DNA of 64,000 nucleotides from Flavobacteriia bacterium. GTDB taxonomy: Bacteria; Bacteroidota; Bacteroidia; Flavobacteriales; Weeksellaceae. The translations under genes were made by a program, and so were the position numbers. This document shows, one piece after another, positions 4,389 through 30,951 of this stretch (its first letter is position 1; every line of letters begins with the position of its first letter). The notes below the pieces were generated by a model. That model did not search any database. It worked only from the letters and a program-made list of their open reading frames with translations, and was not told the DNA's origin. The stretch spans positions 102,469-166,468 of the forward strand of contig JAECQR010000006.1 in assembly GCA_015999765.1 (NCBI GenBank). The letters are read 5' to 3'.

Positions 4389-6095
4389 TTATTTGGTTTT
4401 AATAGATATTTCTTTCTTTCCGTCTTTAATGGAAATGTCTACATTTTCCATTTTGCCAATATTTGTTTTCATAGAATCGATGATTTTATCAGCGGCTGCT
4501 TTGGGCATTTTGGTCCCGTTGATAATCACGCTGTCTTTATCTGATGAATTGTACTGAATGGTAGATCCGTTGATTTTAATCTTATTTTTTTCAATTACTA
4601 CAGCGTTATCGTCATCATTATCATCTTCCATTCCGTCGCCATCCAGATCACCGTCGATATTCAGTCCATTTTCTTTCACCTTGAAAACTCTGGTGTTCAT
4701 GGGAACTACAAGTTCATAGGTCACATTGTAATTACGGAACCGATCCTGGTAAGGGTATTTTACGAAGTTTGGAAGCAATATCTTATTATCCTGAATTTCT
4801 ACAGGTACATTAAGCTGAACCGGAATATTATATCCTTTACCCTCTTTTTTAACGATTAAATATGGCGCTGTAGCAGTTGCACTTCGGGTTACATCAACGT
4901 AAGGATAATCTTCTTCGTAAACCATTTTTTTGTCGGAAAAGATATCATCGTCGTAAGCTGTAAAGTTCTGCGGAATGGTAATCTGTTTCACATCGACATA
5001 AAGACTGTCGGATGTTGTATTGATGGCTACATTCTCTGTATCTTCTTTATGACCTTTGTAAATCATGTCCTTTTTAGCCATATTTACTCCGAAGTAAGTA
5101 CCGAAACCAATCAGGATCAGCAATAGCGCACCTAAAACATATCCTACATTTCTCAGCTGTGTTTTCGGCGAGATAAGTTTGATGGATAATAAACTGAAGA
5201 GAATTGCGGGGATCAGGGTTCCGATCAGCATCATGGCATAAAGTACATTGCTCATACCATCATCTTCAAACATAAAGTTGAATTCGCGCATTGGGGAAAA
5301 TTCAGAATTTCCGCCAAATAATCCGAAGATAAAGAAGGCTCCGATGATACATCCCAAAGCCATCATTCCGAAGATTCCGCCTAGAATGTAACGGATTACA
5401 TTCCAGATCCCGCTTCCTGCATTGTTGATATAAGGCTTGTTTTCAGTGTAAATTTCTCCGACCCTTTGTGTAGATTCATTGGCAAACTGTACAAGTTTGT
5501 TGGATTCGTTTTTCAAATTGTCGAAGTTCATAGGCTTTCCCTTCATTTTCAGGAAATCGGTCGCAGTTTCTGCTTTTGGTAAAACAATCCACAGAATAAC
5601 GTAAATCAAAATAATGAGTGAAGTTGAAATGGCTGCAGTGAAAATCCCAAGGATCGCGATACCTAACCAAATGGCGCGCATTGCACTTACATCCATCCCC
5701 ACGTAATGTGCTAAACCTGCACATACGCCTGCGATTTTCTGTTTCTCAGGATCCCGGAACAGCTGTTTATGGCCGGTGAACGTTCCTGTAGTTTTGTGGT
5801 CTCTTCTTGAAGATTTTTCAGAAAAGTAAGCTTCTTCCTGTTCTTCAATCTGCTCCGGTTTTCCGATTTGCGAAATTACTCTTTCTACATCGGTATCGTT
5901 GATGACTTCGCGTTTTCCTAAAGTGTCTTTGAAGATTTCAACCATCCGGATTTCAATGTCATGCATTACCTCATCAGCTTCATTTGCATCCAAAGAGCTT
6001 CTGAGCGCGGCAAGATAATCACTGAGTTTAATATATGCGTGTTCCTCGATGGTGAATGAGAAACCTGCAAGTCCTATTGAGAGTGTCTTGTTCAT
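4389..6095 (-). CDS. PspC domain-containing membrane protein
   Basis: KQLFRDPEKQKIAGVCAGLAHYVGMDVSAMRAIWLGIAILG PspC motif followed by several TM segments. Confidence 0.9.
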   Translation of the reverse strand: MNKTLSIGLAGFSFTIEEHAYIKLSDYLAALRSSLDANEADEVMHDIEIRMVEIFKDTLGKREVINDTDVERVISQIGKPEQIEEQEEAYFSEKSSRRDHKTTGTFTGHKQLFRDPEKQKIAGVCAGLAHYVGMDVSAMRAIWLGIAILGIFTAAISTSLIILIYVILWIVLPKAETATDFLKMKGKPMNFDNLKNESNKLVQFANESTQRVGEIYTENKPYINNAGSGIWNVIRYILGGIFGMMALGCIIGAFFIFGLFGGNSEFSPMREFNFMFEDDGMSNVLYAMMLIGTLIPAILFSLLSIKLISPKTQLRNVGYVLGALLLILIGFGTYFGVNMAKKDMIYKGHKEDTENVAINTTSDSLYVDVKQITIPQNFTAYDDDIFSDKKMVYEEDYPYVDVTRSATATAPYLIVKKEGKGYNIPVQLNVPVEIQDNKILLPNFVKYPYQDRFRNYNVTYELVVPMNTRVFKVKENGLNIDGDLDGDGMEDDNDDDNAVVIEKNKIKINGSTIQYNSSDKDSVIINGTKMPKAAADKIIDSMKTNIGKMENVDISIKDGKKEISIKTK

Positions 6096-6099
6096 AGTT

Positions 6100-6471
6100 T
6101 TAAGAATTTGGGTGGAACGAGCTTTCAGGTGCGTCCGTGGGGTTATTGTTTTTAGTAATTTGGTTTACAGAATCGGTAAGTTCTTTCCATGTATTGAGTA
6201 GTTCTGCAAGAAACAGTTCTCCTTTTTCTGTAATCTGGTAGTATTTTCTTGGAGGTCCTCCGGTAGATTCTTCCCATCGGTAAGAGAGGAATTCGCCGTT
6301 TTTCAGTCTTGTGAGGAGCGGGTAAAGAGTGCCTTCCACCACATCCAGTTTTCCTTTTTTAAGTTCATCAATCAGATCGGAAACATACATTTCTTTTCTA
6401 TCGATTAAACTCAAAATGCAGAATTCCAGAATTCCTTTCCGCATTTGCGCTTTGGTGTTTTCTGTGTTCAT
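6100..6471 (-). CDS. PadR family transcriptional regulator
   Basis: MNTENTKAQMRKGILEFCILSLIDRKEMYVSDLIDELKK...EGTLYPLLTRLKNGEFLSYRWEES..GPPRKYYQITEKG; start placed at the internal ATG (6471) instead of the track start at 6546. Confidence 0.9.
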   Translation of the reverse strand: MNTENTKAQMRKGILEFCILSLIDRKEMYVSDLIDELKKGKLDVVEGTLYPLLTRLKNGEFLSYRWEESTGGPPRKYYQITEKGELFLAELLNTWKELTDSVNQITKNNNPTDAPESSFHPNS

Positions 6472-6543
6472 ATTATTTGAGGTTATTAATTGGTTCGCTA
6501 TTCTAAATACTCTGTTTAAGTATTCTGTATCAATCTTACTATG

Positions 6544-6575
6544 CAAAGATATATAAATAATTTAGTATTATGCAA
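6544..6575 (-). promoter_or_regulatory. Bacteroidetes-type promoter for padR-pspC (-33 TTG / -7 TATCTTTG)
   Basis: Minus strand TTG-N21-TATCTTTG; matches the TTG...TANNTTTG consensus. Confidence 0.55.
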
Positions 6576-6700
6576 TACAAAGTAGTAAATATTTTAATAA
6601 AATTACATTTTTGGTGGTTGAAATATTGATAAAAAGTCTTACAAATCAATACCATAAACGGTTCCACGATAATTTGAACATCCAATTTTAAGGCAAAAAA

Positions 6701-6726
6701 AATCCGCCTCATTACTGAGACGGATT
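6701..6726 (-). terminator. intrinsic terminator of the 6755..9109 gene
   Basis: AATCCGCCTCA-TTAC-TGAGACGGATT-type hairpin with A-run on + side. Confidence 0.75.
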
Positions 6727-6754
6727 GATTTTAAATTAAATTTTCGTGAAAACA

Positions 6755-9109
6755 CTACTTCTTAATTACTTTAATTGAGTTGACTGAACCATCTTCCATG
6801 TGCAATGTCACGATATAAAGACCAGTTCTCAAATCTGAAAGGTTAAGCTGAGCAGCTGCTTTCATATTTTTCACCTGTCTTCCTGCAACATCATTTACTG
6901 AAACAGATTTCACTCCTTTTACATCGGAAATATTTAATACATCTGTAAACGGATTTGGATAAACCGCCACTTTAGCTTTATCGATATTTGAAGTTCCCGT
7001 TGTAGCTGTATTCACCTGAATCGTGTAATCTTCGACCTGACCAAATGTAGAACCTGTTGTAACACAGGCGTTGGCAAAATTGCTCAGGTTAGGATCTGTT
7101 GCAGGCCCCCCTGAAGGGTAAAACGCAGATTTAACTCTCATTCTTGTCTGCCCCAATTTCGCATCTGCAGGTACTACAACTGAACCTGTAGCCGGAGTTC
7201 CGGTTACACCATCAGACCCTAATACAAATATAAAGTTTGCAGGTGTTGTAAAATATTTTTCCCCCGCATCATCAAAGTCTCCATCCTGATTCCAGTCGAT
7301 GAATACCGCAAAATAATGTCTGAAGGAAGCTCCATCGGTATTCGCATTCATTGAAATTGGGTAGGTGGTGTTTGTTAACACGGTTCCTACTTTATCCAGG
7401 AAGAACTCGTGAGCCGATGTTCCATTTAATGCAGCAGATGTGGTATTATTAATGCCCGCAAATGTTACATTGGTTGTAGGCTCCACGGTGGTGTAAGTCA
7501 AAGGTCCACAATAAGCCACTCCTACGGTTGTAAATGACATTTCGGTACATCCCGCGGCGTCGCCTAAATTATTATAGGGTACCACTCTAAGATAGTAAGT
7601 GGTATTTGGCGCTAATCCGGGCTTGTACGATGTGGAGCTAACAATTGTGCCATTTGCAAATTCGTTTCCTCCCGGTGTAGTACCGATATACACTTTGTAT
7701 CCGGCTGCAAATTCCGCCGCAGCCCAGGTAATCGTTCCGTTTGCGGGGAAGTCTGCAGCACCTGCCAGCGGTAAGGTAACAGTGGTACAAACGGGTACAG
7801 ATGGTGGAACCTGAACGGATAATGTATAATCTTCAACCTGTCCGTTGGTCACATTCGCGCAGGGATTGGCTAAAGGATCAAGAAGTGCAGTTGTGGAACT
7901 GTTGAAATTGTATTTGATACGCATTCTTTTGTTCCCTAATGAAGCTCCTGCCGGCACAGTAATGTTTCCGGTTAAATTTACTGTGGCACCGGTGCCTCCT
8001 ACCAAAGGTGCTGCGGTAAAATACTGTTCATTTGCATCGTTAAAATCACCATCATTATTCCAGTCCACAAAAGCGGTCATTCCAAATCTATTGGTACCTA
8101 AACCAGTTCCTGTAACCGCTAGTTGATGGGTAAGACCTTGATAAACATTCATCACTGTAGCTGTAAAATCTTCGTAAGCCGGTGCGCCGGTAGTTGCCGC
8201 AGAAGTATTGGTAACGCCATTGAGAGATACAGATGATATCGGATAGGTCACCGTATTAGAACTGATAGGTCCACAGTAGCCGATCACACTGTTGGTTGTG
8301 AACGAAATTTCTGAGCAACCTGCAGCGTCTCCGTTAAGGTTCCCAGGAACTACGCTTGCATAATAAGTAGTATTGGGAGCCAAAGTAACATTGGTATTAG
8401 TTCCCGTAACCGTAGTATTATAAATATTTGAGCTTCCCGGTGATGTTCCGATGGCCACCTTATAATTTACGGCAGCAGGAACAGCATTCCAGGCTAAATT
8501 GAGGTTCCCTGCAGAAATTGTGGACCCGTCTGCAGGATTCATAATGGTTGTGCAACCAGGTGTCGTTGTAACAGTCTCCTGATTAATAGAAATATCATCA
8601 ACATAGATATTACCGGTCGTTGTTCCGCTTCGTACAAACCAAGCCCCGATTCCGTATACCTGTCCCGGCTGAATAACTCCGGAAGGAATAGTAGCATTTA
8701 AGGTGGCACAGGTGGTAAGCGCCGTAGATGACAGGACTACAGATGGCCCGAAAGTGTTGACCGTCCATTGATTGGTTGCTGCATTGAAAACAAAATACGC
8801 CAGACTTAAGGTGCCCGTAATATTTGCTGCTTTCTTGTATCCTACACTTACGTCAATTTTTTGTCCGTTACCGGTTTGGCCAATTGTACTTAAGTCGATC
8901 ATATACCCTGTCTGGGTCACTGATGAGCTTATTGCAAGTTGTCCGCCATTTGTGCCGTTACAGGCAGCTGTAGCTGTACGGGTGCCGTTACCAAATTGCT
9001 TGTATGTTGTGGTATTATAACCTGGGTCTTCGAAGTCACCGGTGTAGGTATACTGGGCATTCGAGCTGATTCCGAGTGCGATAAAGCACGAGAGTAAAAA
9101 TTTTTTCAT
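6755..9109 (-). CDS. T9SS type A sorting domain-containing protein with GEVED and FN3-like modules
   Basis: Signal peptide; repeated DWNxDGDFxDAxExYF / RMRxKxxF / GQVEDYTIQV (GEVED); C-terminal VAVYPNPFTDVLNISDVKGVKSVSVNDVAGRQV...LRTGLYIVTLHMEDGSVNSIKVIKK. Confidence 0.9.
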   Translation of the reverse strand: MKKFLLSCFIALGISSNAQYTYTGDFEDPGYNTTTYKQFGNGTRTATAACNGTNGGQLAISSSVTQTGYMIDLSTIGQTGNGQKIDVSVGYKKAANITGTLSLAYFVFNAATNQWTVNTFGPSVVLSSTALTTCATLNATIPSGVIQPGQVYGIGAWFVRSGTTTGNIYVDDISINQETVTTTPGCTTIMNPADGSTISAGNLNLAWNAVPAAVNYKVAIGTSPGSSNIYNTTVTGTNTNVTLAPNTTYYASVVPGNLNGDAAGCSEISFTTNSVIGYCGPISSNTVTYPISSVSLNGVTNTSAATTGAPAYEDFTATVMNVYQGLTHQLAVTGTGLGTNRFGMTAFVDWNNDGDFNDANEQYFTAAPLVGGTGATVNLTGNITVPAGASLGNKRMRIKYNFNSSTTALLDPLANPCANVTNGQVEDYTLSVQVPPSVPVCTTVTLPLAGAADFPANGTITWAAAEFAAGYKVYIGTTPGGNEFANGTIVSSTSYKPGLAPNTTYYLRVVPYNNLGDAAGCTEMSFTTVGVAYCGPLTYTTVEPTTNVTFAGINNTTSAALNGTSAHEFFLDKVGTVLTNTTYPISMNANTDGASFRHYFAVFIDWNQDGDFDDAGEKYFTTPANFIFVLGSDGVTGTPATGSVVVPADAKLGQTRMRVKSAFYPSGGPATDPNLSNFANACVTTGSTFGQVEDYTIQVNTATTGTSNIDKAKVAVYPNPFTDVLNISDVKGVKSVSVNDVAGRQVKNMKAAAQLNLSDLRTGLYIVTLHMEDGSVNSIKVIKK

Positions 9110-9340: not shown

Positions 9341-10954
9341 TTATTTTTTGATTGCTTTAATTGTTTTAGAACTTCCGTCTTCCATGTTTAAAGTAACCAT
9401 GTAAAGACCAGATTTCAATTCTGAAACGTTAAGTTCAGCAGCCGGTTTCATGGTTTTAACCAATCGTCCTGCAACATCCGTGATTGAAACAGATTTCACT
9501 CCATTTACATCAGAAATTTTCAATACATCATGGAATGGGTTAGGATATATAGAAAGGTTAGCTTTTTTTACATCTGATGCAGCTAAAAACTGAACATAAT
9601 CTATTTTATAATCTTCTGCCTGACCATTAGTAAGATCTGCACATGCGGTTGTTAATGTTGCATTAACTGAAGTTCCGGAGAAATTGTATTTAACTCTCAT
9701 TCTTTTCGTCCCTAATGCTGTCCCGGAAGGAATCGCAATATTTCCTGTTAACGTAATCACCCCATTAGTAATGGTGGTAGACCTTTTGATGGTAGCAGCA
9801 GTATTAAAATAAGATTCTCCCGCATCATTGAAATCTCCGTCTTCATTCCAGTCAACAAATACAGTCATCGCAAAGCCATTAGCTCCAATACCTATGCCTT
9901 TCACTGTAATCGGCACCGTGGTAATATTGTTTTTAACTTCAAATACAGTTGATGTAAAATCTTCGTGAGCGACATACGAACCCGCAACGGTCGCAGTAGC
10001 ATCCGAGTCATTAGTAATTCCAGCAAAGGTTACTGACTTAATAGGTGTCATAGCAGTAGGAGCACTTGAAGTTAGCGGACCACAATATGGTGCTAATGGA
10101 TTCGCTCCCGTTGTAAAGCTTTTTTCAGTACAACCCGTGGCTTCTCCTAAGCTGTTAATAGGAGTAATCGAAGCATATAAAAGAGTATTTGCAGGCAATA
10201 CATTGCTGGATGAAGGAGTATAAGACTGGTTAGGTGATACGTCAGATAATACATCATCTCCCCCAGAGGTGGTTCCAATTTTCACTCTATAAGTTTGAGC
10301 GTTTTCTACTGCAGCCCATGTTAAAGTTGGTCTTACAGAAACATTGGTTGCATTATCGGCTGGAAGAATTAGAGAAGTACATACTGGTAATGCAGTAACC
10401 TCTTGAGCGATTAGCACTTTATCAAAAAAGGTATAAAAGTCGTTACCTGAAGCTGTGGATACGCTTTGAATTCTCAACTTAAAATTGCCCGTAACAGCAG
10501 CTGTTTCTGGGATAGTAACCGAATAAGGGGTACATGTTTCTCCCACTGTTCCTGCAGCTAAAGTCAATGGCGTCCCAACGGGTATATAAGTTGTTCCGTT
10601 ATCCGTTGAGTAACTTACATTTACTGTACCACTTATTGTGGAAGTAGCAGAATATGGGATTGTACTTACAGTAAAAGATACATCAATCTTTTTCCCATTG
10701 GCAGTCATTGCGGTAGGTTTCGTGTAAACTAAGTTTAATGTTGCTGACGTTGTAGCTCCATAATTGTTTCCTCCAATCGCTGCAATTCCATCACACGACG
10801 TAGGATTAAGATTATAAACGCCAGTACTCCCACTGAAAGCTCCTGACACAACAAATGTGGCGGGACTTCCTGATTCAAAACTTTCGCTGACATAAATTTG
10901 CGCACTTGCGCCAAATCCCAATGCTAAAAAGCACGATAGTAAAATTTTCTTCAT
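9341..10954 (-). CDS. T9SS type A sorting domain-containing GEVED protein
   Basis: Signal peptide, one GEVED module ([17 protein letters not shown]...[11 protein letters not shown]), [32 protein letters not shown]9SS CTD. Confidence 0.9.
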
Positions 10955-11133
10955 AAATATTTAAATTTGTTAATTGAGCCAAAACTAAACAATTAATTTT
11001 AATAAAGCCTAAATTCTTTCACAAATATTTAACAAAGTTTTAAATGTCTTACGAATTGGATAATTTCAGTGCTTTTCTTCCCTTAAAACATAGACAAGCT
11101 GTCCAAAAACATACAATCACTTTTTGTTCATCA

Positions 11134-24645: not shown

Positions 24646-25680
24646 TTAATTGCTTTTCTCGAGTAAAAAACTGAACTGTGTACCTTCCAAATATACGCTT
24701 TCCACGGAGATATTCTCACCATGCGCTTCCAGAATATGTTTCACAATCGCGAGTCCCAGTCCGGATCCGCCATCGTTGCGGTTTCTGCTGGTTTCCACGC
24801 GGTAAAACCTTTCAAAAATACGGGGTAAAACTTCAGGTTTAATTCCCATTCCGTTGTCTTCCACGAGGACCAAAACCTTATTTTTCAGGATGGTAGTTTT
24901 GATGATGATCTGCGCCTTGTCTCTGTTCGCATAATGAATGGCATTTGAAATTAAATTGATCAGGACCTGAGAGATTTTCTGCTTATCGGCATTTACAAAA
25001 ATCTGCGGTGCTGCGGTCTGCAGCTGTACTCTTGCTTCTTTCCGAAGTGCTTCCAGATCCAGAAGGTCAATAATCTCGCGCACGACACTGTTGAGATCGA
25101 AACTGGTGATATTTAGCGTTATCTCGCCGGATTCGTACTGGTTGATCATATCAAGATCCTTCACGATATTAAGTAACCTTTCTACCGATTTATCAATTCT
25201 TTCCAAGTATTTATCGCGGATTGCCAGATTTTCCACACCGCCATCCATAAGGGTTTCAACATATCCCTGGATAGAAAATAAAGGGGTTTTCAGTTCATGA
25301 GAAACATTTCCGATGTATTCTTTCCGATAAGTTTCCATTTCTTTCATGGTTACCATTTCGGTTGCACTCTTTTGGCTAAAGGCAGAAAATCTTTCCCCCA
25401 GCTGCTTAAAATCCATTTCATTATCATCATCGGGACTAATGTCTTCCGGAAGAATGGTAGAGATTTTTCTTATCTGCTTTTTACCATAGAAATTAAAAAG
25501 GTAATCAAGAATCACATAATTAAGCGCAAATATTAGGACGACACAAACCAAAAGAGTAAGATAAAAATTGCTTTTGCTGTGAAAAACCGCATCGTTGGTA
25601 TAATCGAAACCCAACGCCACCAGAGACATGGCTACGGTCAGGAAAACTGAAGCAAGTAAAGTAAGCCGGTGAAACCTCAT
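24646..25680 (-). CDS. sensor histidine kinase (PhoR-like)
   Basis: HisKA YIGNVSHELKTPLFSIQGYVETL; HATPase NLISNAIHYAN, VEDNGMGIKPEVLPRIFERFYRVETSRNRNDGGSGLGLAIVKHI. Confidence 0.92.
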   Translation of the reverse strand: MRFHRLTLLASVFLTVAMSLVALGFDYTNDAVFHSKSNFYLTLLVCVVLIFALNYVILDYLFNFYGKKQIRKISTILPEDISPDDDNEMDFKQLGERFSAFSQKSATEMVTMKEMETYRKEYIGNVSHELKTPLFSIQGYVETLMDGGVENLAIRDKYLERIDKSVERLLNIVKDLDMINQYESGEITLNITSFDLNSVVREIIDLLDLEALRKEARVQLQTAAPQIFVNADKQKISQVLINLISNAIHYANRDKAQIIIKTTILKNKVLVLVEDNGMGIKPEVLPRIFERFYRVETSRNRNDGGSGLGLAIVKHILEAHGENISVESVYLEGTQFSFLLEKSN

Positions 25681-25689
25681 CTTACAAAT

Positions 25690-26367
25690 TTACACAACTA
25701 ATTTGTAACCGATTCCTTTTAAGGTCTGAATGGTACCGATTCCCAGTTTTTCGCGGAGGCGGCGGATGTGTACATCGATGGTTCTTTCGCCAACAATTAC
25801 ATCGTTGCCCCAGACTTTTTCCAGGATTTCTTCGCGTTTGAAAACTTTATTGGTATTGGAAGCAAGGAGATAAAGCAGGTCAAATTCTTTTTTAGGAAGC
25901 AGAAACTGTTGCCCTGCCTTGGAAACCCTGAAATTATCTTTATCAATTATCAAATCGCCAACATTAATATTTTTTGAAGTCTCAGAAACCTGCGAAGTAA
26001 GCTGTAAAAGGGCGTTGACTTTAGAAATAAGAATTTTCGGTTTAATGATTTTCACGATATAATCGTTGGCGCCCGCCTGAAAACCGGCAAGCTGAGAAAA
26101 CTCTTCGCTTCTTGCGGAAAGAAATACGATGAGCGTTTTCTGCAGTTCTTTGATTTTTCTTAAATCCTGGCAGGTTTCGATGCCGTCTTTTTCCGGCATC
26201 ATCACATCCAGTAGAATAAGATCGGGGATGATCTGTTTTGCCTTTTCAATTCCTTCGTTTCCGTTGCTGGCGGTGGAAACCTGGTAACCTTCTTTTTCAA
26301 GATTATAGGACAATATTTCTAAAATATCCTGTTCATCATCAATTAAAAGAATTTTTTTCTGATTCAT
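25690..26367 (-). CDS. response regulator transcription factor (PhoB-like, OmpR family)
   Basis: KKILLIDDEQDILEILSYNLEKEGY receiver; winged-helix VWGNDVIVGERTIDVHIRRLREKLG. Confidence 0.93.
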   Translation of the reverse strand: MNQKKILLIDDEQDILEILSYNLEKEGYQVSTASNGNEGIEKAKQIIPDLILLDVMMPEKDGIETCQDLRKIKELQKTLIVFLSARSEEFSQLAGFQAGANDYIVKIIKPKILISKVNALLQLTSQVSETSKNINVGDLIIDKDNFRVSKAGQQFLLPKKEFDLLYLLASNTNKVFKREEILEKVWGNDVIVGERTIDVHIRRLREKLGIGTIQTLKGIGYKLVV

Positions 26368-26430
26368 CTTTACTATTTAACCTTTCAAAGTTAGTCAAAT
26401 TTGATATCGCAAAACCGGCAGATTATAATA

Positions 26431-26447
26431 TTCATAATTAATTAACA
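26431..26447 (+). promoter_or_regulatory. candidate Pho box (TTCATA-N5-TTAACA)
   Basis: 11-bp-phased direct repeat between divergent phoB-like gene and TBDR gene. Confidence 0.4.
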
Positions 26448-26563
26448 TTACCCCAATTCCGTTCAGAATTTCTTAAAGCAAACTTAAGATTATAGAAACA
26501 CCAAAACGGCGTGTTCTTTATTCCTTTGCAACGAGAGAAATTTATTAAAAAGAATCAAGTAAA

Positions 26564-29110
26564 ATGAGCAAACTAAGTATTGCAGTTTTTTTTCTAAGCT
26601 GTTCAACAACAATACTCTACGCGCAGGAATTAAGGAACGACACCATTAAAAAAGAGAAGCGTATTGAAGGAGTTACCATACAGGGCAGCGTTAAAAAAAG
26701 TTCTGAAAGCAACATTATAAGCCTTCAGAAAAAATCGGTGGAAGTAATTGAACGCGTAGGTGCAGCCCAACTCGAAAAACAGGGAGTTGGTGATGTATCG
26801 GTAGCGGTTACCAAAGCCACCGGCGCACAGAAACAGGAAGGCAGCGGACAGGTTTTTATCCGGGGACTTGGCGACAGGAACAACGCCACTACCATGAACG
26901 GATTGCCGATCCCGTCTAACGATCCTGTTTATAAAAATATTGATCTAAGCATCGTGAAAACCGACATGATTGATTATGTAGGTCTGGAAAAAGTGTACAA
27001 CCCAAAAATGTGGGGCGACATGTCTGGTGCCAATATCGATATTATATCTAAAGTTTATACCGGCAAACCTTACTTCAAAATCAACCTGGGATCGTCGGTA
27101 AATACCAATGCTATAAATAAGGACAGGTTCTATCTCCAGAACGGACCCGGGTATTTCGGATTCAAGCAGATTAAGAAACCACTGAACGCCGCCTTAATAA
27201 ACAACGGATATGCGTTCAATACTACCTGGGCTAACAGAGAAGTTTTCACGCCACTTAACTCATCTTTAGGAGCAGATTTCGGCAGAACTTTCAATATTGG
27301 TGAAGAAGGAAAGCTGAGTCTTTTCGGATTCGGATCTTTTGAAAACAATTACGGTTACAAAGAAGGCATCACCAAATCTGTAGACAATGTTGGTGAAGCT
27401 ACAAAAGACCTCTTCGGCACCGAATATTCTTACGCGACTAATGCTACAGGCTTAATCAACCTTAATTATAAGCTCAACAGCAATCATAATTTAAAGTTCG
27501 TTTCGAATTACATCCATACTACTGAACAGAAATTAGAGAATTATTCCGGTTACATCCGGGACACTAATGAAAACAGAGCAGAAGAAACCGCTTTGCTGAG
27601 AAGAGCTAACTACAAAACAAACGATTTATTCATTAATCAGCTTGCGGGTGAACACAACATTTCTTCGCCGCTAAAAGTTTACTGGAACTTAGGCTTCAAC
27701 AGACTCGACAGCCGCAGACCCGACAGGATGCAGAATATCTCAATCTACAACAGAACAACAGACAGCAATTATTTCGGCGCAAGTAATCCGGGAGCCAACC
27801 ACAGGTATTTCGACAAACTGATTGAGAATGATTATGTGGGAGACCTTCATGCAGACTACGAAATCAGCGAAAATGCAAAAGTGACTTTCGGTTACAACGG
27901 AAGATACAAGAAAAGTGATTTCCAGGCTACCCAGTTTAACCTTAGAGTAAACGCCGTACCGGGAAGCTATTATCTGGACACCAATGATTACGGAAGTTTC
28001 TTCAACACCAATAATTATGCAGCAGGATTTTTCGATATTGTAACCTTCCGTGGAGACATCAGATGGAATCCTGAAACGGCCTTAATTCCGCAGTTTTATA
28101 ATTCCGAAATCCTCAACAATGCAGGTTACACGAATATCGATTATAAATTCAGCGACAGATTTACTGCACAGTTCGGCGTGAGATATGATAATCTGGATCA
28201 GAAAATCAATTACAGCACTTCGATTAAAGAAGGTGCAGTAGACAAACAATATTCTAAAATCCTTCCGGCGCTTAATTTAAAATATGCGGTAAATGACAAG
28301 CATAACCTTAGATTTTCAGCTTCTAAAACGTATACTACTCCACTATTGCTCGAAACGGCTCCTTATGAGTATGAAGAAGTGGATGAACTGAGCTTCGGTA
28401 ACCCTGCGCTATATCCTTCAGACAACTACAACGCAGATCTGAAGTGGGAATGGTTCCCGAAAAGAGGCGAAGTAATTTCGGTTACGGCTTTCGGAAAATA
28501 CATTCAGAATCCTATTTCCAGGGTAACGGTGAATTCATCTTCGAACTCGGTTTCATTTGTAAATATTGGCGACATGGGACATGTTTTCGGAGTTGAAATG
28601 GAAATGCGTAAAGACCTTTACCAACAGAACAACACCAAAATCTACACCTTCTTAAACGGTACTTACCTGAACACAAAACAGGAACTGAGCGCAGAAAAAG
28701 TAGCAGCTGAAACTCTGACACCTTACTCTAACCAGGTTTCTATAGACCCATCAAAGTCCAAAGACAAAATGCAGGGCGCATCTGAATTCCTTGCGAACGT
28801 AAACCTTGGAATCGAACAGAAATGGGGCGAGAAAAACAGTTTAGATTTCGTGCTTTCCTACTCCCATATTTCAGATAATATTTACGCCATCGGTTATGCT
28901 TCAAAAGGAAATTTAGTCGACAAAGCAGTTAATATGCTGGATGCGGTGGCTAAAGTGAACTTCGGTAACGGAATTGGATTTTCCATCAGCGGAAAAAACC
29001 TTCTGAATACTAATTTCACGAGAGTACAGGACAACCAGAACGGCGAAGTAACCGTAAGAGACTACAAAAAAGGAATCAATCTCGGAATGGGAGTTTCCTA
29101 TCAGTTTTAA
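26564..29110 (+). CDS. TonB-dependent receptor
   Basis: Signal peptide; plug GQVFIRGLGDRNNATTMNGLPIPSNDP; barrel ending in GMGVSYQF. Confidence 0.92.
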   Translation: MSKLSIAVFFLSCSTTILYAQELRNDTIKKEKRIEGVTIQGSVKKSSESNIISLQKKSVEVIERVGAAQLEKQGVGDVSVAVTKATGAQKQEGSGQVFIRGLGDRNNATTMNGLPIPSNDPVYKNIDLSIVKTDMIDYVGLEKVYNPKMWGDMSGANIDIISKVYTGKPYFKINLGSSVNTNAINKDRFYLQNGPGYFGFKQIKKPLNAALINNGYAFNTTWANREVFTPLNSSLGADFGRTFNIGEEGKLSLFGFGSFENNYGYKEGITKSVDNVGEATKDLFGTEYSYATNATGLINLNYKLNSNHNLKFVSNYIHTTEQKLENYSGYIRDTNENRAEETALLRRANYKTNDLFINQLAGEHNISSPLKVYWNLGFNRLDSRRPDRMQNISIYNRTTDSNYFGASNPGANHRYFDKLIENDYVGDLHADYEISENAKVTFGYNGRYKKSDFQATQFNLRVNAVPGSYYLDTNDYGSFFNTNNYAAGFFDIVTFRGDIRWNPETALIPQFYNSEILNNAGYTNIDYKFSDRFTAQFGVRYDNLDQKINYSTSIKEGAVDKQYSKILPALNLKYAVNDKHNLRFSASKTYTTPLLLETAPYEYEEVDELSFGNPALYPSDNYNADLKWEWFPKRGEVISVTAFGKYIQNPISRVTVNSSSNSVSFVNIGDMGHVFGVEMEMRKDLYQQNNTKIYTFLNGTYLNTKQELSAEKVAAETLTPYSNQVSIDPSKSKDKMQGASEFLANVNLGIEQKWGEKNSLDFVLSYSHISDNIYAIGYASKGNLVDKAVNMLDAVAKVNFGNGIGFSISGKNLLNTNFTRVQDNQNGEVTVRDYKKGINLGMGVSYQF

Positions 29111-29151
29111 AAATCAAAACCAAATTAAATAAATCATTTAAAGTAAAAATT

Positions 29152-30315
29152 ATGAAAAAGAACCATTTAAAAGTTTTAGCATTAGCACTTTTATTACCTG
29201 CAGCTTTCGCGGTACAGTCTTGTGATAACGGAGATGATCCCATCACCCCTTCTACCCCAACAGGAATTGCTGCCAATCCTAATGATTTCAAAGGTGAAGT
29301 GAAATCTGGTGAAAAAGTAACACTTGATGCTACCAAAGTATACAAACTTACAGGTGCGGTTCAAGTAAAAGATGGCGGTCAGCTTATTATTCCTGCCGGA
29401 ACAAGAATCGAATCAACAGGTGGAACTTCTGCATATATCACGGTAGAACAGGGAGGTAAAATCTTTGCTAACGGAACAGCATCTGCACCGGTAGTATTCA
29501 CTTCTCCAACCGGAACAGCAGGAAGCTGGGGCGGTATTGTAATCGCTGGTAAAGCACCAATCAACAAAGGAGTTACTGCTTCTGCAGAAGTAGGAAACGC
29601 TACTTATGGCGGTACTGTTGCTAACGACAACTCAGGATCTTTAACGTACGTAAGAATTGAGCATTCAGGAGCAATTTTTACAGGTGAAAAGGAATTCAAC
29701 GGTCTTTCACTTTTCGGAGTGGGCAGTGGAACTACAATCAGCAACATCTCGATCCTGAACGGTGCTGATGACGGTATTGAATTCTTCGGAGGAACTGTAA
29801 ATGTATCGAACATTATTTCTGTAGGAAACGAAGATGATGCTTTCGACTGGACTGAAGGATGGAAAGGTACAGCAACCAATGTTTACGCAAAAAGAAGAGC
29901 GAACGGTATTGGAAACAGAGGTATTGAGGCAGACAACAATGCGGAAAATAACAATGCGGACCCAAGATCTAACCCAACCATTAAAAACGCAACATTTATC
30001 GGAGCTGAAAGCGGCGAATCTGATGGTATTAAGTTGCGTGTAGGAACTTATGCAACTATCGACAACGTGGTATTGTCTAACTGGAAAACAGGAATCAACG
30101 TAGAGCACGATGCTTCTGTAGCTTATTTTAACGGTGGCGGAAAAATCACCAACATAAAATTCGATAACGTACTTACACAGGCCTCTGTAAAAGCAAGCAC
30201 TGGTTCTCCGGCAGCTGTTTTACTGCCAAATACCTTTGTTGAAAATGCCAACGCAACAGGCGCAGGAAACGGAACTGCTGCACCATCTTGGGCTGCAACC
30301 TGGGGCGGACTATAA
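29152..30315 (+). CDS. predicted lipoprotein with parallel beta-helix-like repeats
   Basis: Lipobox FAVQSCDNGDD; Gly/Asn-rich regular repeats (GGIVIAGKAPIN, VRIEHSGAIF, ISNISILNGADDGIEFFGGTVNVSNIISVGNEDDAFDW). Confidence 0.7.
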   Translation: MKKNHLKVLALALLLPAAFAVQSCDNGDDPITPSTPTGIAANPNDFKGEVKSGEKVTLDATKVYKLTGAVQVKDGGQLIIPAGTRIESTGGTSAYITVEQGGKIFANGTASAPVVFTSPTGTAGSWGGIVIAGKAPINKGVTASAEVGNATYGGTVANDNSGSLTYVRIEHSGAIFTGEKEFNGLSLFGVGSGTTISNISILNGADDGIEFFGGTVNVSNIISVGNEDDAFDWTEGWKGTATNVYAKRRANGIGNRGIEADNNAENNNADPRSNPTIKNATFIGAESGESDGIKLRVGTYATIDNVVLSNWKTGINVEHDASVAYFNGGGKITNIKFDNVLTQASVKASTGSPAAVLLPNTFVENANATGAGNGTAAPSWAATWGGL

Positions 30316-30343
30316 GACTCACTTAACACATTCATATCAAATT

Positions 30344-30370
30344 AAACCATCGGATTTTCCGGTGGTTTTT
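30344..30370 (+). terminator. intrinsic terminator downstream of the lipoprotein gene
   Basis: AAACCATCGG-ATTT-TCCGGTGGTTTTTTTTT. Confidence 0.7.
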
Positions 30371-30377
30371 TTTTCTG

Positions 30378-30394
30378 TTAACATTAAGTTCACA
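30378..30394 (+). promoter_or_regulatory. candidate Pho box (TTAACA-N5-TTCACA)
   Basis: 11-bp-phased direct repeat. Confidence 0.4.
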
Positions 30395-30462
30395 TTGCAA
30401 TCTGCTGGAATCATGCATTTTAAACCCTTTTTCTGCGCTAATATTAAATTTTCACTTTCTAA

Positions 30463-30490
30463 TGTGAATTTAATATGAATTATTTGTTAA
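30463..30490 (-). promoter_or_regulatory. candidate triple Pho box (TTAACA-N5-TTCATA-N5-TTCACA)
   Basis: Three TTMAYA hexamers exactly 11 bp apart on the minus strand (30463, 30474, 30485). Confidence 0.5.
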
Positions 30491-30567
30491 TTAAAAATGA
30501 ATTTACTTGCTTTGTATATCAAAACAGAAATTTACTTACTAATTCAGACAAATAAAAAAGGAATATC

Positions 30568-30951
30568 ATGAAAAATATGGTCAAAATACTCGGGGTTTTT
30601 GGGGTTTTAATAGCAGCAGGATTCACTTCAACTATTAATGCACAGGACACCAACGTTATAAAAGAAGTAAAAATTAATTCAAACGACGGATTCGGTGAGT
30701 TAAGAAATCTGGTAATGCAGAATTTCGATTTTACCAATCCTGAGTTTACGGAAGGAAAAATCAACAGCACCGTTACTTTTGAAGTTGCTGAAAGCGGAAG
30801 AATTTCACACGTTTCGGTAGACGGCGACTGTAAATATGTTAGCAAAGAAATCGAAGACGTGATGACGAATCTTCTTTATAAATTCGACAACGCCTCAAAA
30901 ATGAACAGCGTTTATGTGCTGCCGGTTACTGTTTTTATTGCCTCCAGATAA
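30568..30951 (+). CDS. small secreted TonB C-terminal-like protein
   Basis: Signal peptide; INSTVTFEVAESGRISHVSVDGDCKYVSKEIEDVMTNL...VYVLPVTVFIASR resembles the TonB CTD fold. Confidence 0.6.
   Translation: MKNMVKILGVFGVLIAAGFTSTINAQDTNVIKEVKINSNDGFGELRNLVMQNFDFTNPEFTEGKINSTVTFEVAESGRISHVSVDGDCKYVSKEIEDVMTNLLYKFDNASKMNSVYVLPVTVFIASR

What the first reader, a model, noticed from the sequence alone, without database searches (positions are those of the whole stretch)
26431..30490. 11-bp-phased TTMAYA direct repeats mark a candidate Pho regulon beside a PhoR/PhoB-like system
Three sites share one grammar. They are TTCATA-N5-TTAACA (26431-26447), between the divergent phoB-like and TonB-receptor genes; TTAACA-N5-TTCACA (30378-30394); and, on the minus strand, TTAACA-N5-TTCATA-N5-TTCACA (30463-30490) upstream of the small TonB-CTD-like gene. 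Hexamer starts are exactly 11 bp apart in every case. E. coli Pho boxes (7-mer plus 4 bp) and Bacillus PhoP boxes (TT[ACT]A[CT]A plus about 5 bp) have the same 11-bp phase. Recurrence at both intergenic regions of a locus holding a PhoR/PhoB-like pair suggests these are the regulator's operators. The AT-rich background means chance matches must be excluded.
Basis: partly seen in the sequence, partly recalled or inferred. Interest (0 to 1): 0.72.

Follow-up and report, generated by a model that had tools for sequence, protein, structure and literature searches.

The report
Phosphate-response promoter switches in Kaistella
Short DNA words repeated every 11 bases sit at fixed distances in front of genes beside a phosphate-type sensor/regulator pair; the same arrays sit in front of phosphate-scavenging genes in many related bacteria, so they are very probably the docking sites of that regulator, a known kind of switch mapped here in a group where it was poorly described.

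Summary
In detail: all three sites are exact at the stated coordinates (5 matches in the window against 0.32 expected in shuffles). Comparative footprinting decides it. Site 1 is part of a larger promoter array, TTMAYA-like repeats R1-R2, 14 bp, then R3-R6 at an 11-bp period, with R6 starting 30/31 bp before the Bacteroidota -7 TTTG. A profile built without the window's genome finds this promoter there (E=1.5e-12). Elsewhere it recovers the promoter when the TonB-receptor operon has moved, when the receptor has been replaced by a ~30%-identical one, and before receptor-GDPD and receptor-phytase operons. PhoX and the FIII-type lipoprotein carry arrays in the related register of 19. phoB has its own reverse-oriented doublet 46-48 bp from its -7, kept where phoB stands alone. 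The syntenic Flavobacterium johnsoniae genes are strongly low-phosphate induced (published). The downstream triple is conserved but reverse-oriented, overlapping a canonical -33, so its effect (perhaps repression) is open. Binding by this regulator is inferred, not shown. New member of a known kind (PHO box).

The parts
24646..25680 (-). PhoR-like histidine kinase, 344 aa, HisKA + HATPase; no PAS or other sensor domain found by Pfam
   Evidence: PnpS/PhoR profiles best, below equivalog cut-offs
25690..26367 (-). PhoB-like response regulator, 225 aa (Response_reg + Trans_reg_C)
   Evidence: TIGR02154 PhoB best, 205 bits, below the 296-bit cut-off; orthologs mostly 74-97% identical in Weeksellaceae, about 57-62% in Flavobacterium and other distant genomes
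26386..26393 (-). putative -7 element of phoB, TAACTTTG
   Evidence: conserved TAAYTTTG 21-24 bp before phoB ATG in most of the upstream regions examined
26431..26447 (.). R1-R2 doublet TTCATA-N5-TTAACA; reverse-oriented phoB box (47 bp from phoB -7) and distal part of the TBDR array
26462..26500 (+). proximal array R3-R6: TTCAGA-N5-TTAAAG-N5-TTAAGA-N5-GAAACA, 11-bp period
26525..26528 (+). TTTG of the putative -7 of the TBDR promoter, 30 bp after R6 starts; no -33 TTTG
   Evidence: 0 of 30 TBDR promoters have a TTTG in the -33 window
26564..29110 (+). TonB-dependent receptor, 848 aa; counterpart by synteny of F. johnsoniae Fjoh_0545 (low-Pi induced, +8.0 log2)
29152..30315 (+). secreted lipoprotein, 387 aa; same family as the FII/FIII-type lipoproteins of Flavobacterium; no Pfam or PDB match
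30344..30368 (+). intrinsic-terminator-like hairpin closing the TBDR-lipoprotein operon
30378..30394 (+). TTAACA-N5-TTCACA doublet just after the terminator
   Evidence: conserved as TTAAYA-N5-TTMAYA in the window and four close relatives, absent from more distant genera
30463..30490 (-). triple TTAACA-N5-TTCATA-N5-TTCACA; in the sense of the 30568 gene TGTGAA/TATGAA/TGTTAA at 48/37/26 bp from its -7, overlapping the -33
   Evidence: conserved in 9 sequences from several genera
30483..30486 (+). putative -33 TTTG of the small gene
   Evidence: TTTG 28 bp before the -7 TTTG in 8 of 8 sequences
30511..30514 (+). TTTG of the putative -7 of the small gene
30568..30951 (+). small secreted protein, 127 aa, function unknown
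   Evidence: (present in three of the genera sampled)

Best explanation
The repeats are PHO-box-type operators of the adjacent PhoR-PhoB-like system. Phosphorylated PhoB would bind head-to-tail, one monomer per 11-bp repeat. At the TBDR promoter, which has no -33 element, the array R3-R6 placed a fixed 30 bp from the -7 recruits RNA polymerase under phosphate starvation and turns on the outer-membrane receptor and surface lipoprotein. The R1-R2 doublet strengthens this and, read in the other direction, autoregulates phoB-phoR. The reverse-oriented triple overlapping the canonical -33 of the small gene is a third operator whose sign is uncertain (repression or activation). Shown here: sequence, positions, conservation and co-occurrence. 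Taken from the literature: low-phosphate induction of the syntenic F. johnsoniae genes. Inferred: binding by this regulator, activation mechanism, and the phosphate signal in this organism.
For: Exact sites, above chance in the window. Array R1-R6 with constant period and constant distance to -7 in most of 30 receptor promoters, clearly readable in about 26. Profile R1, made without the window's genome, hits only this promoter there (E=1.5e-12; next hit E=0.15). Same promoter before a ~30%-identical receptor occupying the phoB-adjacent slot in 9 genomes. Arrays before TBDR-GDPD (E 7e-5 and 1e-4), TBDR-phytase (E 0.0024), PhoX and FIII genes. Register/period controls: 71 of 750 upstream regions score >=18 at period 11 and registers 19/30, against 1-4 at other periods and 4-17 at other registers. 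Receptor 50/91 against other genes 13/637. phoB doublet at 46-48 bp from its -7, including genomes where phoB is not next to the receptor. F. johnsoniae: TBDT +8.0, FII +9.9, PhoB +3.1, phytase TBDT +9.2, PhoX +12.5, FIII +11.6 log2 under low Pi. Riemerella PhoP: DAP-seq core TTTAACA, EMSA binding to its own promoter region, PhoPR reported upregulated in phosphate starvation (PMC9603813).
Against: No binding or expression data for this organism. The doublet is not specific genome-wide. OprP-like porin genes in Flavobacterium carry a good array, yet F. johnsoniae OprP (Fjoh_0542) was not induced. The registers were chosen after seeing receptor promoters, so the receptor counts are partly circular; three of the 13 'other' hits came from loci fetched by the profile. 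The Riemerella authors read their PhoP as an ArcA-like redox/virulence regulator, and pstS rose in its mutant. Orthology of that PhoP to the window's regulator was not verified. Profile R2 did not recover other Flavobacterium Pho promoters.
Confidence: 0.85

Rival explanations
1. The arrays bind this regulator, but its signal is redox or envelope state rather than phosphate (an ArcA-like role), as proposed for Riemerella PhoP; the receptor would import something other than a phosphorus compound.
For: Riemerella PhoP motif resembles ArcA's and its mutants change Bat and cytochrome genes (PMC9603813). ArcA boxes have the same 11-bp direct-repeat grammar (PMC3798270). The kinase has no recognised sensor domain and the genome has no PhoU.
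Against: Array-bearing genes in relatives are GDPD, phytase, PhoX and FIII operons, and syntenic genes are induced by low Pi and not by low N or Fe in F. johnsoniae. Riemerella PhoPR is itself reported as upregulated in phosphate starvation.
Confidence: 0.08
2. The conserved repeats are operators of a different OmpR-family regulator of the cell (for example an RprY-like one), and neighbouring phoB is only one of its targets.
For: The genome encodes other full-length OmpR-type regulators about 30% identical to this one; 11-bp direct repeats are the general grammar of the family.
Against: The arrays are at the phoB locus itself, conserved at phoB even when phoB stands alone, and recur before phosphate genes.
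Confidence: 0.05
3. Chance matches in AT-rich intergenic DNA.
For: Most of the 37 genomic doublets look like this.
Against: Window count 5 vs 0.32 expected; cross-genus conservation at fixed distance; profile E=1.5e-12 on a genome not used for training.
Confidence: 0.02

Closest known systems
PHO box of PhoB (E. coli) and PhoP (B. subtilis, Streptomyces)
   Same: 11-nt direct repeat units next to promoters of phosphate genes, several repeats per promoter, regulator gene itself controlled (review PMC4415409)
   Different: consensus here is TTMAYA/TRTKAA with 4-6 repeats set to a Bacteroidota -7 (TTTG) promoter; receptor and phoB promoters use opposite orientations at two fixed registers; no pho box of this kind for Flavobacteriia was found in the papers searched
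Riemerella anatipestifer PhoP motif (DAP-seq, PMC9603813)
   Same: same family Weeksellaceae, core TTTAACA, binding to its own promoter region
   Different: published as an ArcA-like motif of 583 peaks; 11-bp arrays, promoter register and phosphate targets are not described in the passages read; orthology not verified here
ArcA box of E. coli (PMC3798270)
   Same: two to five direct repeats with 11-bp centre-to-centre spacing
   Different: regulates redox genes with no fixed position or orientation, whereas here position and orientation are fixed
PhoBR locus of Flavobacterium johnsoniae, Fjoh_0541-0549 (PMC8115612)
   Same: PhoR-PhoB-TBDT-FII lipoprotein synteny; low-phosphate induction shown there
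   Different: no regulatory motif was described; the window's locus has a further small secreted gene with its own promoter

Membership tests
PHO box / Pho regulon operator | tandem direct repeats with an 11-bp period | tested here: met
PHO box / Pho regulon operator | located at promoters of phosphate-acquisition genes | tested here: met
   in relatives: GDPD, phytase, PhoX, FIII lipoprotein; in the window's genome only this locus was found, PhoU and PhoX are absent
PHO box / Pho regulon operator | bound by the phosphorylated PhoB/PhoP regulator | not testable with these tools
   needs EMSA or DAP-seq with this regulator
PHO box / Pho regulon operator | genes respond to phosphate limitation | not testable with these tools
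   published for syntenic F. johnsoniae genes only
PhoB-PhoR two-component system | response regulator and kinase match PhoB/PhoR profiles above curated cut-offs | tested here: not met
   best-scoring profiles are PhoB (TIGR02154) and PnpS/PhoR but below equivalog cut-offs; the name rests on synteny with F. johnsoniae PhoBR
PhoB-PhoR two-component system | coupled to Pst/PhoU | tested here: not met
   no PhoU in the genome while 13 of 14 controls have it; Pst was not searched. pstS is present in only 26 of 102 Flavobacterium genomes (PMC8115612), so this coupling is not universal in the group
TonB C-terminal domain protein (30568 gene) | match to the TonB_C profile | tested here: not met
   no match in Pfam or NCBIfam, nothing significant in PDB

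The most novel reading that the evidence does not exclude
Flavobacteriia use an orientation code: PhoB arrays in the TTMAYA direction at registers 19/30 activate promoters that lack a -33, while arrays in the opposite direction overlapping a canonical -33 (as at the 30568 gene, registers 26/37/48) repress, so one regulator switches receptor synthesis on and a small envelope protein off under phosphate starvation, without PhoU.
Probability: 0.25. Interest if true: 0.68.

Novelty: new member of a known kind. Interest (0 to 1): 0.5.

Why it matters
It gives a usable description (repeat, period, distance to the -7, orientation) of a Pho operator for Weeksellaceae and Flavobacterium, where low-phosphate genes are known from transcriptomes but no operator was found in the papers searched. 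It makes the regulon predictable from sequence, links the Riemerella PhoP motif to a phosphate role that can be tested, and shows that different receptor cassettes have been exchanged under one conserved promoter.

Tried and rejected
Genome-wide doublet search as evidence: 37 hits, mostly unrelated genes, so rejected as a marker. Spacing scans returned only truncated lists; partial histogram. Profile R2 from Flavobacterium receptor promoters hit its training locus strongly but no other convincing Pho promoter; judged too gene-specific. Profile hits in a nuo gene (G100) and a tetR promoter (G043) were judged false positives. The other lipoprotein homologs in Flavobacterium (L295-L299) showed no array. 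Literature searches for a Flavobacterium or Bacteroides Pho box gave no published motif; B. fragilis PhoB was shown to bind its pst promoter without a consensus being given.
Full report
Observation. The three sites are present exactly as described. TTMAYA-N5-TTMAYA occurs five times in the window against 0.32 expected in dinucleotide shuffles; the fifth match is at 11018-11034. In the whole 2.77-Mb genome (G000, 14 contigs) there are 37 matches against 12 for the reversed pattern. I read the gene context of 30 of them: outside this locus none flanks an obvious phosphate gene. The bare doublet is therefore enriched but not diagnostic.

Setting. The genes are a PhoR-like kinase and PhoB-like regulator (best profiles PnpS/PhoR and PhoB, below equivalog cut-offs), a divergent TonB-dependent receptor, a lipoprotein without Pfam or PDB match, and a 127-aa secreted protein that no profile recognises. 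Named relatives place the genome in or near Kaistella (K. soli 89% and K. montana 86% identity over the receptor). The order PhoR-PhoB-receptor-lipoprotein is conserved through Weeksellaceae and in Flavobacterium. It matches the 'PhoBR operon' of F. johnsoniae, whose receptor (Fjoh_0545, +8.0 log2), lipoprotein FII (Fjoh_0546, +9.9) and PhoB (Fjoh_0544, +3.1) are induced by phosphate depletion (PMC8115612).

Receptor promoter. Aligning receptor promoters from 30 genomes shows that 26431-26447 is the distal part of a longer array: R1-N5-R2, usually 14 bp, then R3-N5-R4-N5-R5-N5-R6, with R6 starting 30 or 31 bp before the TTTG of a -7 element. In the window these are TTCATA, TTAACA, then TTCAGA, TTAAAG, TTAAGA, GAAACA (26462-26500) and TTTG at 26525. 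None of the 30 promoters has a TTTG in the -33 window, as expected for an activator-dependent promoter. In several genomes the receptor-lipoprotein operon lies elsewhere in the chromosome, yet the same array precedes it. In Flavobacterium the array is AACACA-ATAACA-GTAACA-TTCACA with the last repeat 19 bp from the TTTG, one repeat closer.

Independent recovery. A sequence-only profile of 19 promoters, none from the window's genome, was searched in 38 genomes. In the window's genome its only significant hit is this promoter (E=1.5e-12; next E=0.15). In nine genomes it hits upstream of a receptor only about 30% identical that occupies the same phoB-adjacent slot. Away from the locus it hits before a receptor followed by a glycerophosphodiester phosphodiesterase (two Chryseobacterium-group genomes, E 7e-5 and 1e-4), a receptor followed by a phytase (E 0.0024), and a stand-alone lipoprotein of the same family; GDPD and phytase were confirmed by Pfam. 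By inspection, PhoX of the Chryseobacterium group and the FIII-type lipoprotein of Flavobacterium have arrays at register 19. In F. johnsoniae the phytase receptor, PhoX and FIII genes are induced by 9.2, 12.5 and 11.6 log2 units.

Controls. Over 750 upstream regions, four repeats scoring at least 18 of 24 occur 71 times at period 11 with registers 19/20/30/31, 1-4 times at other periods and 4-17 times at other registers. Receptor genes account for 50 of 91 regions, other genes for 13 of 637; 10 of those 13 are OprP-like porins beside phoR, the receptor-GDPD genes, another receptor or a glycosyltransferase of the locus. Two cautions: the registers were learned from receptor promoters, and related sequences are not independent. 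The porin, PhoX and FIII cases are free of the first objection. OprP of F. johnsoniae was not induced, so an array does not guarantee induction.

phoB promoter. Seen from phoB, the doublet reads TRTKAA-N5-TRTKAA. It lies 46-48 bp from the phoB -7 (TAAYTTTG) in most genomes, including those where phoB no longer faces the receptor. This fits autoregulation. Riemerella PhoP, from the same family, was shown by EMSA to bind its own promoter region and has a DAP-seq core TTTAACA (PMC9603813), but its orthology to this regulator was not checked, and its authors stress redox and virulence functions.

Downstream sites. The lipoprotein gene ends in a terminator-like hairpin. The 30378 doublet follows it and is conserved only in close relatives. 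The triple 30463-30490 is conserved in nine sequences. In the sense of the 30568 gene it reads TGTGAA-TATGAA-TGTTAA at 48, 37 and 26 bp from the -7 TTTG and overlaps a -33 TTTG kept exactly 28 bp from the -7 in 8 of 8 sequences. Orientation and register therefore differ from the receptor promoter and resemble phoB's. Because it covers a canonical promoter, repression is plausible, but activation as at phoB is equally consistent with the sequence.

Conclusion. The repeats are very probably PhoB operators (0.85). Shown: sequence, period, register, conservation, recurrence before phosphate genes. Published for relatives: low-phosphate induction. Inferred: binding, activation mechanism, the signal in this organism, and the sign at the small gene. 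As a kind of system it is a PHO box; new are its description for this group, its fixed geometry and the two orientations.

Noticed in passing
L131-L139 (phoB-adjacent locus in nine genomes): Two receptor + lipoprotein cassettes with receptors only about 30% identical alternate in the same slot under the same promoter across Kaistella and Chryseobacterium relatives.
   Followed up: partly
window 25690-26367: Weeksellaceae PhoB orthologs have K-I/L/V where the receiver domain normally has K-P (DYIVKIIKPK in the window); Flavobacterium keeps K-P.
   Followed up: partly
window 11018-11034: A further doublet TTCACA-N5-TTAACA lies upstream of a minus-strand secreted protein gene (about 9518-10954) with a TAGTTTTG -7; it also gives a weak profile hit (E=0.33).
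   Followed up: partly
whole genome G000: No PhoU and no PhoX gene detected, so the kinase would have to sense phosphate without PhoU.
   Followed up: partly
L196, L198, L199, L201, L202, L204 (about 5940-7320, minus): OprP-like porin genes beside phoR in Flavobacterium carry one of the best arrays although F. johnsoniae OprP was not induced by low phosphate.
   Followed up: partly
L078, L083, L084 and similar Chryseobacterium loci: A second lipoprotein paralog directly follows the first.
   Followed up: no
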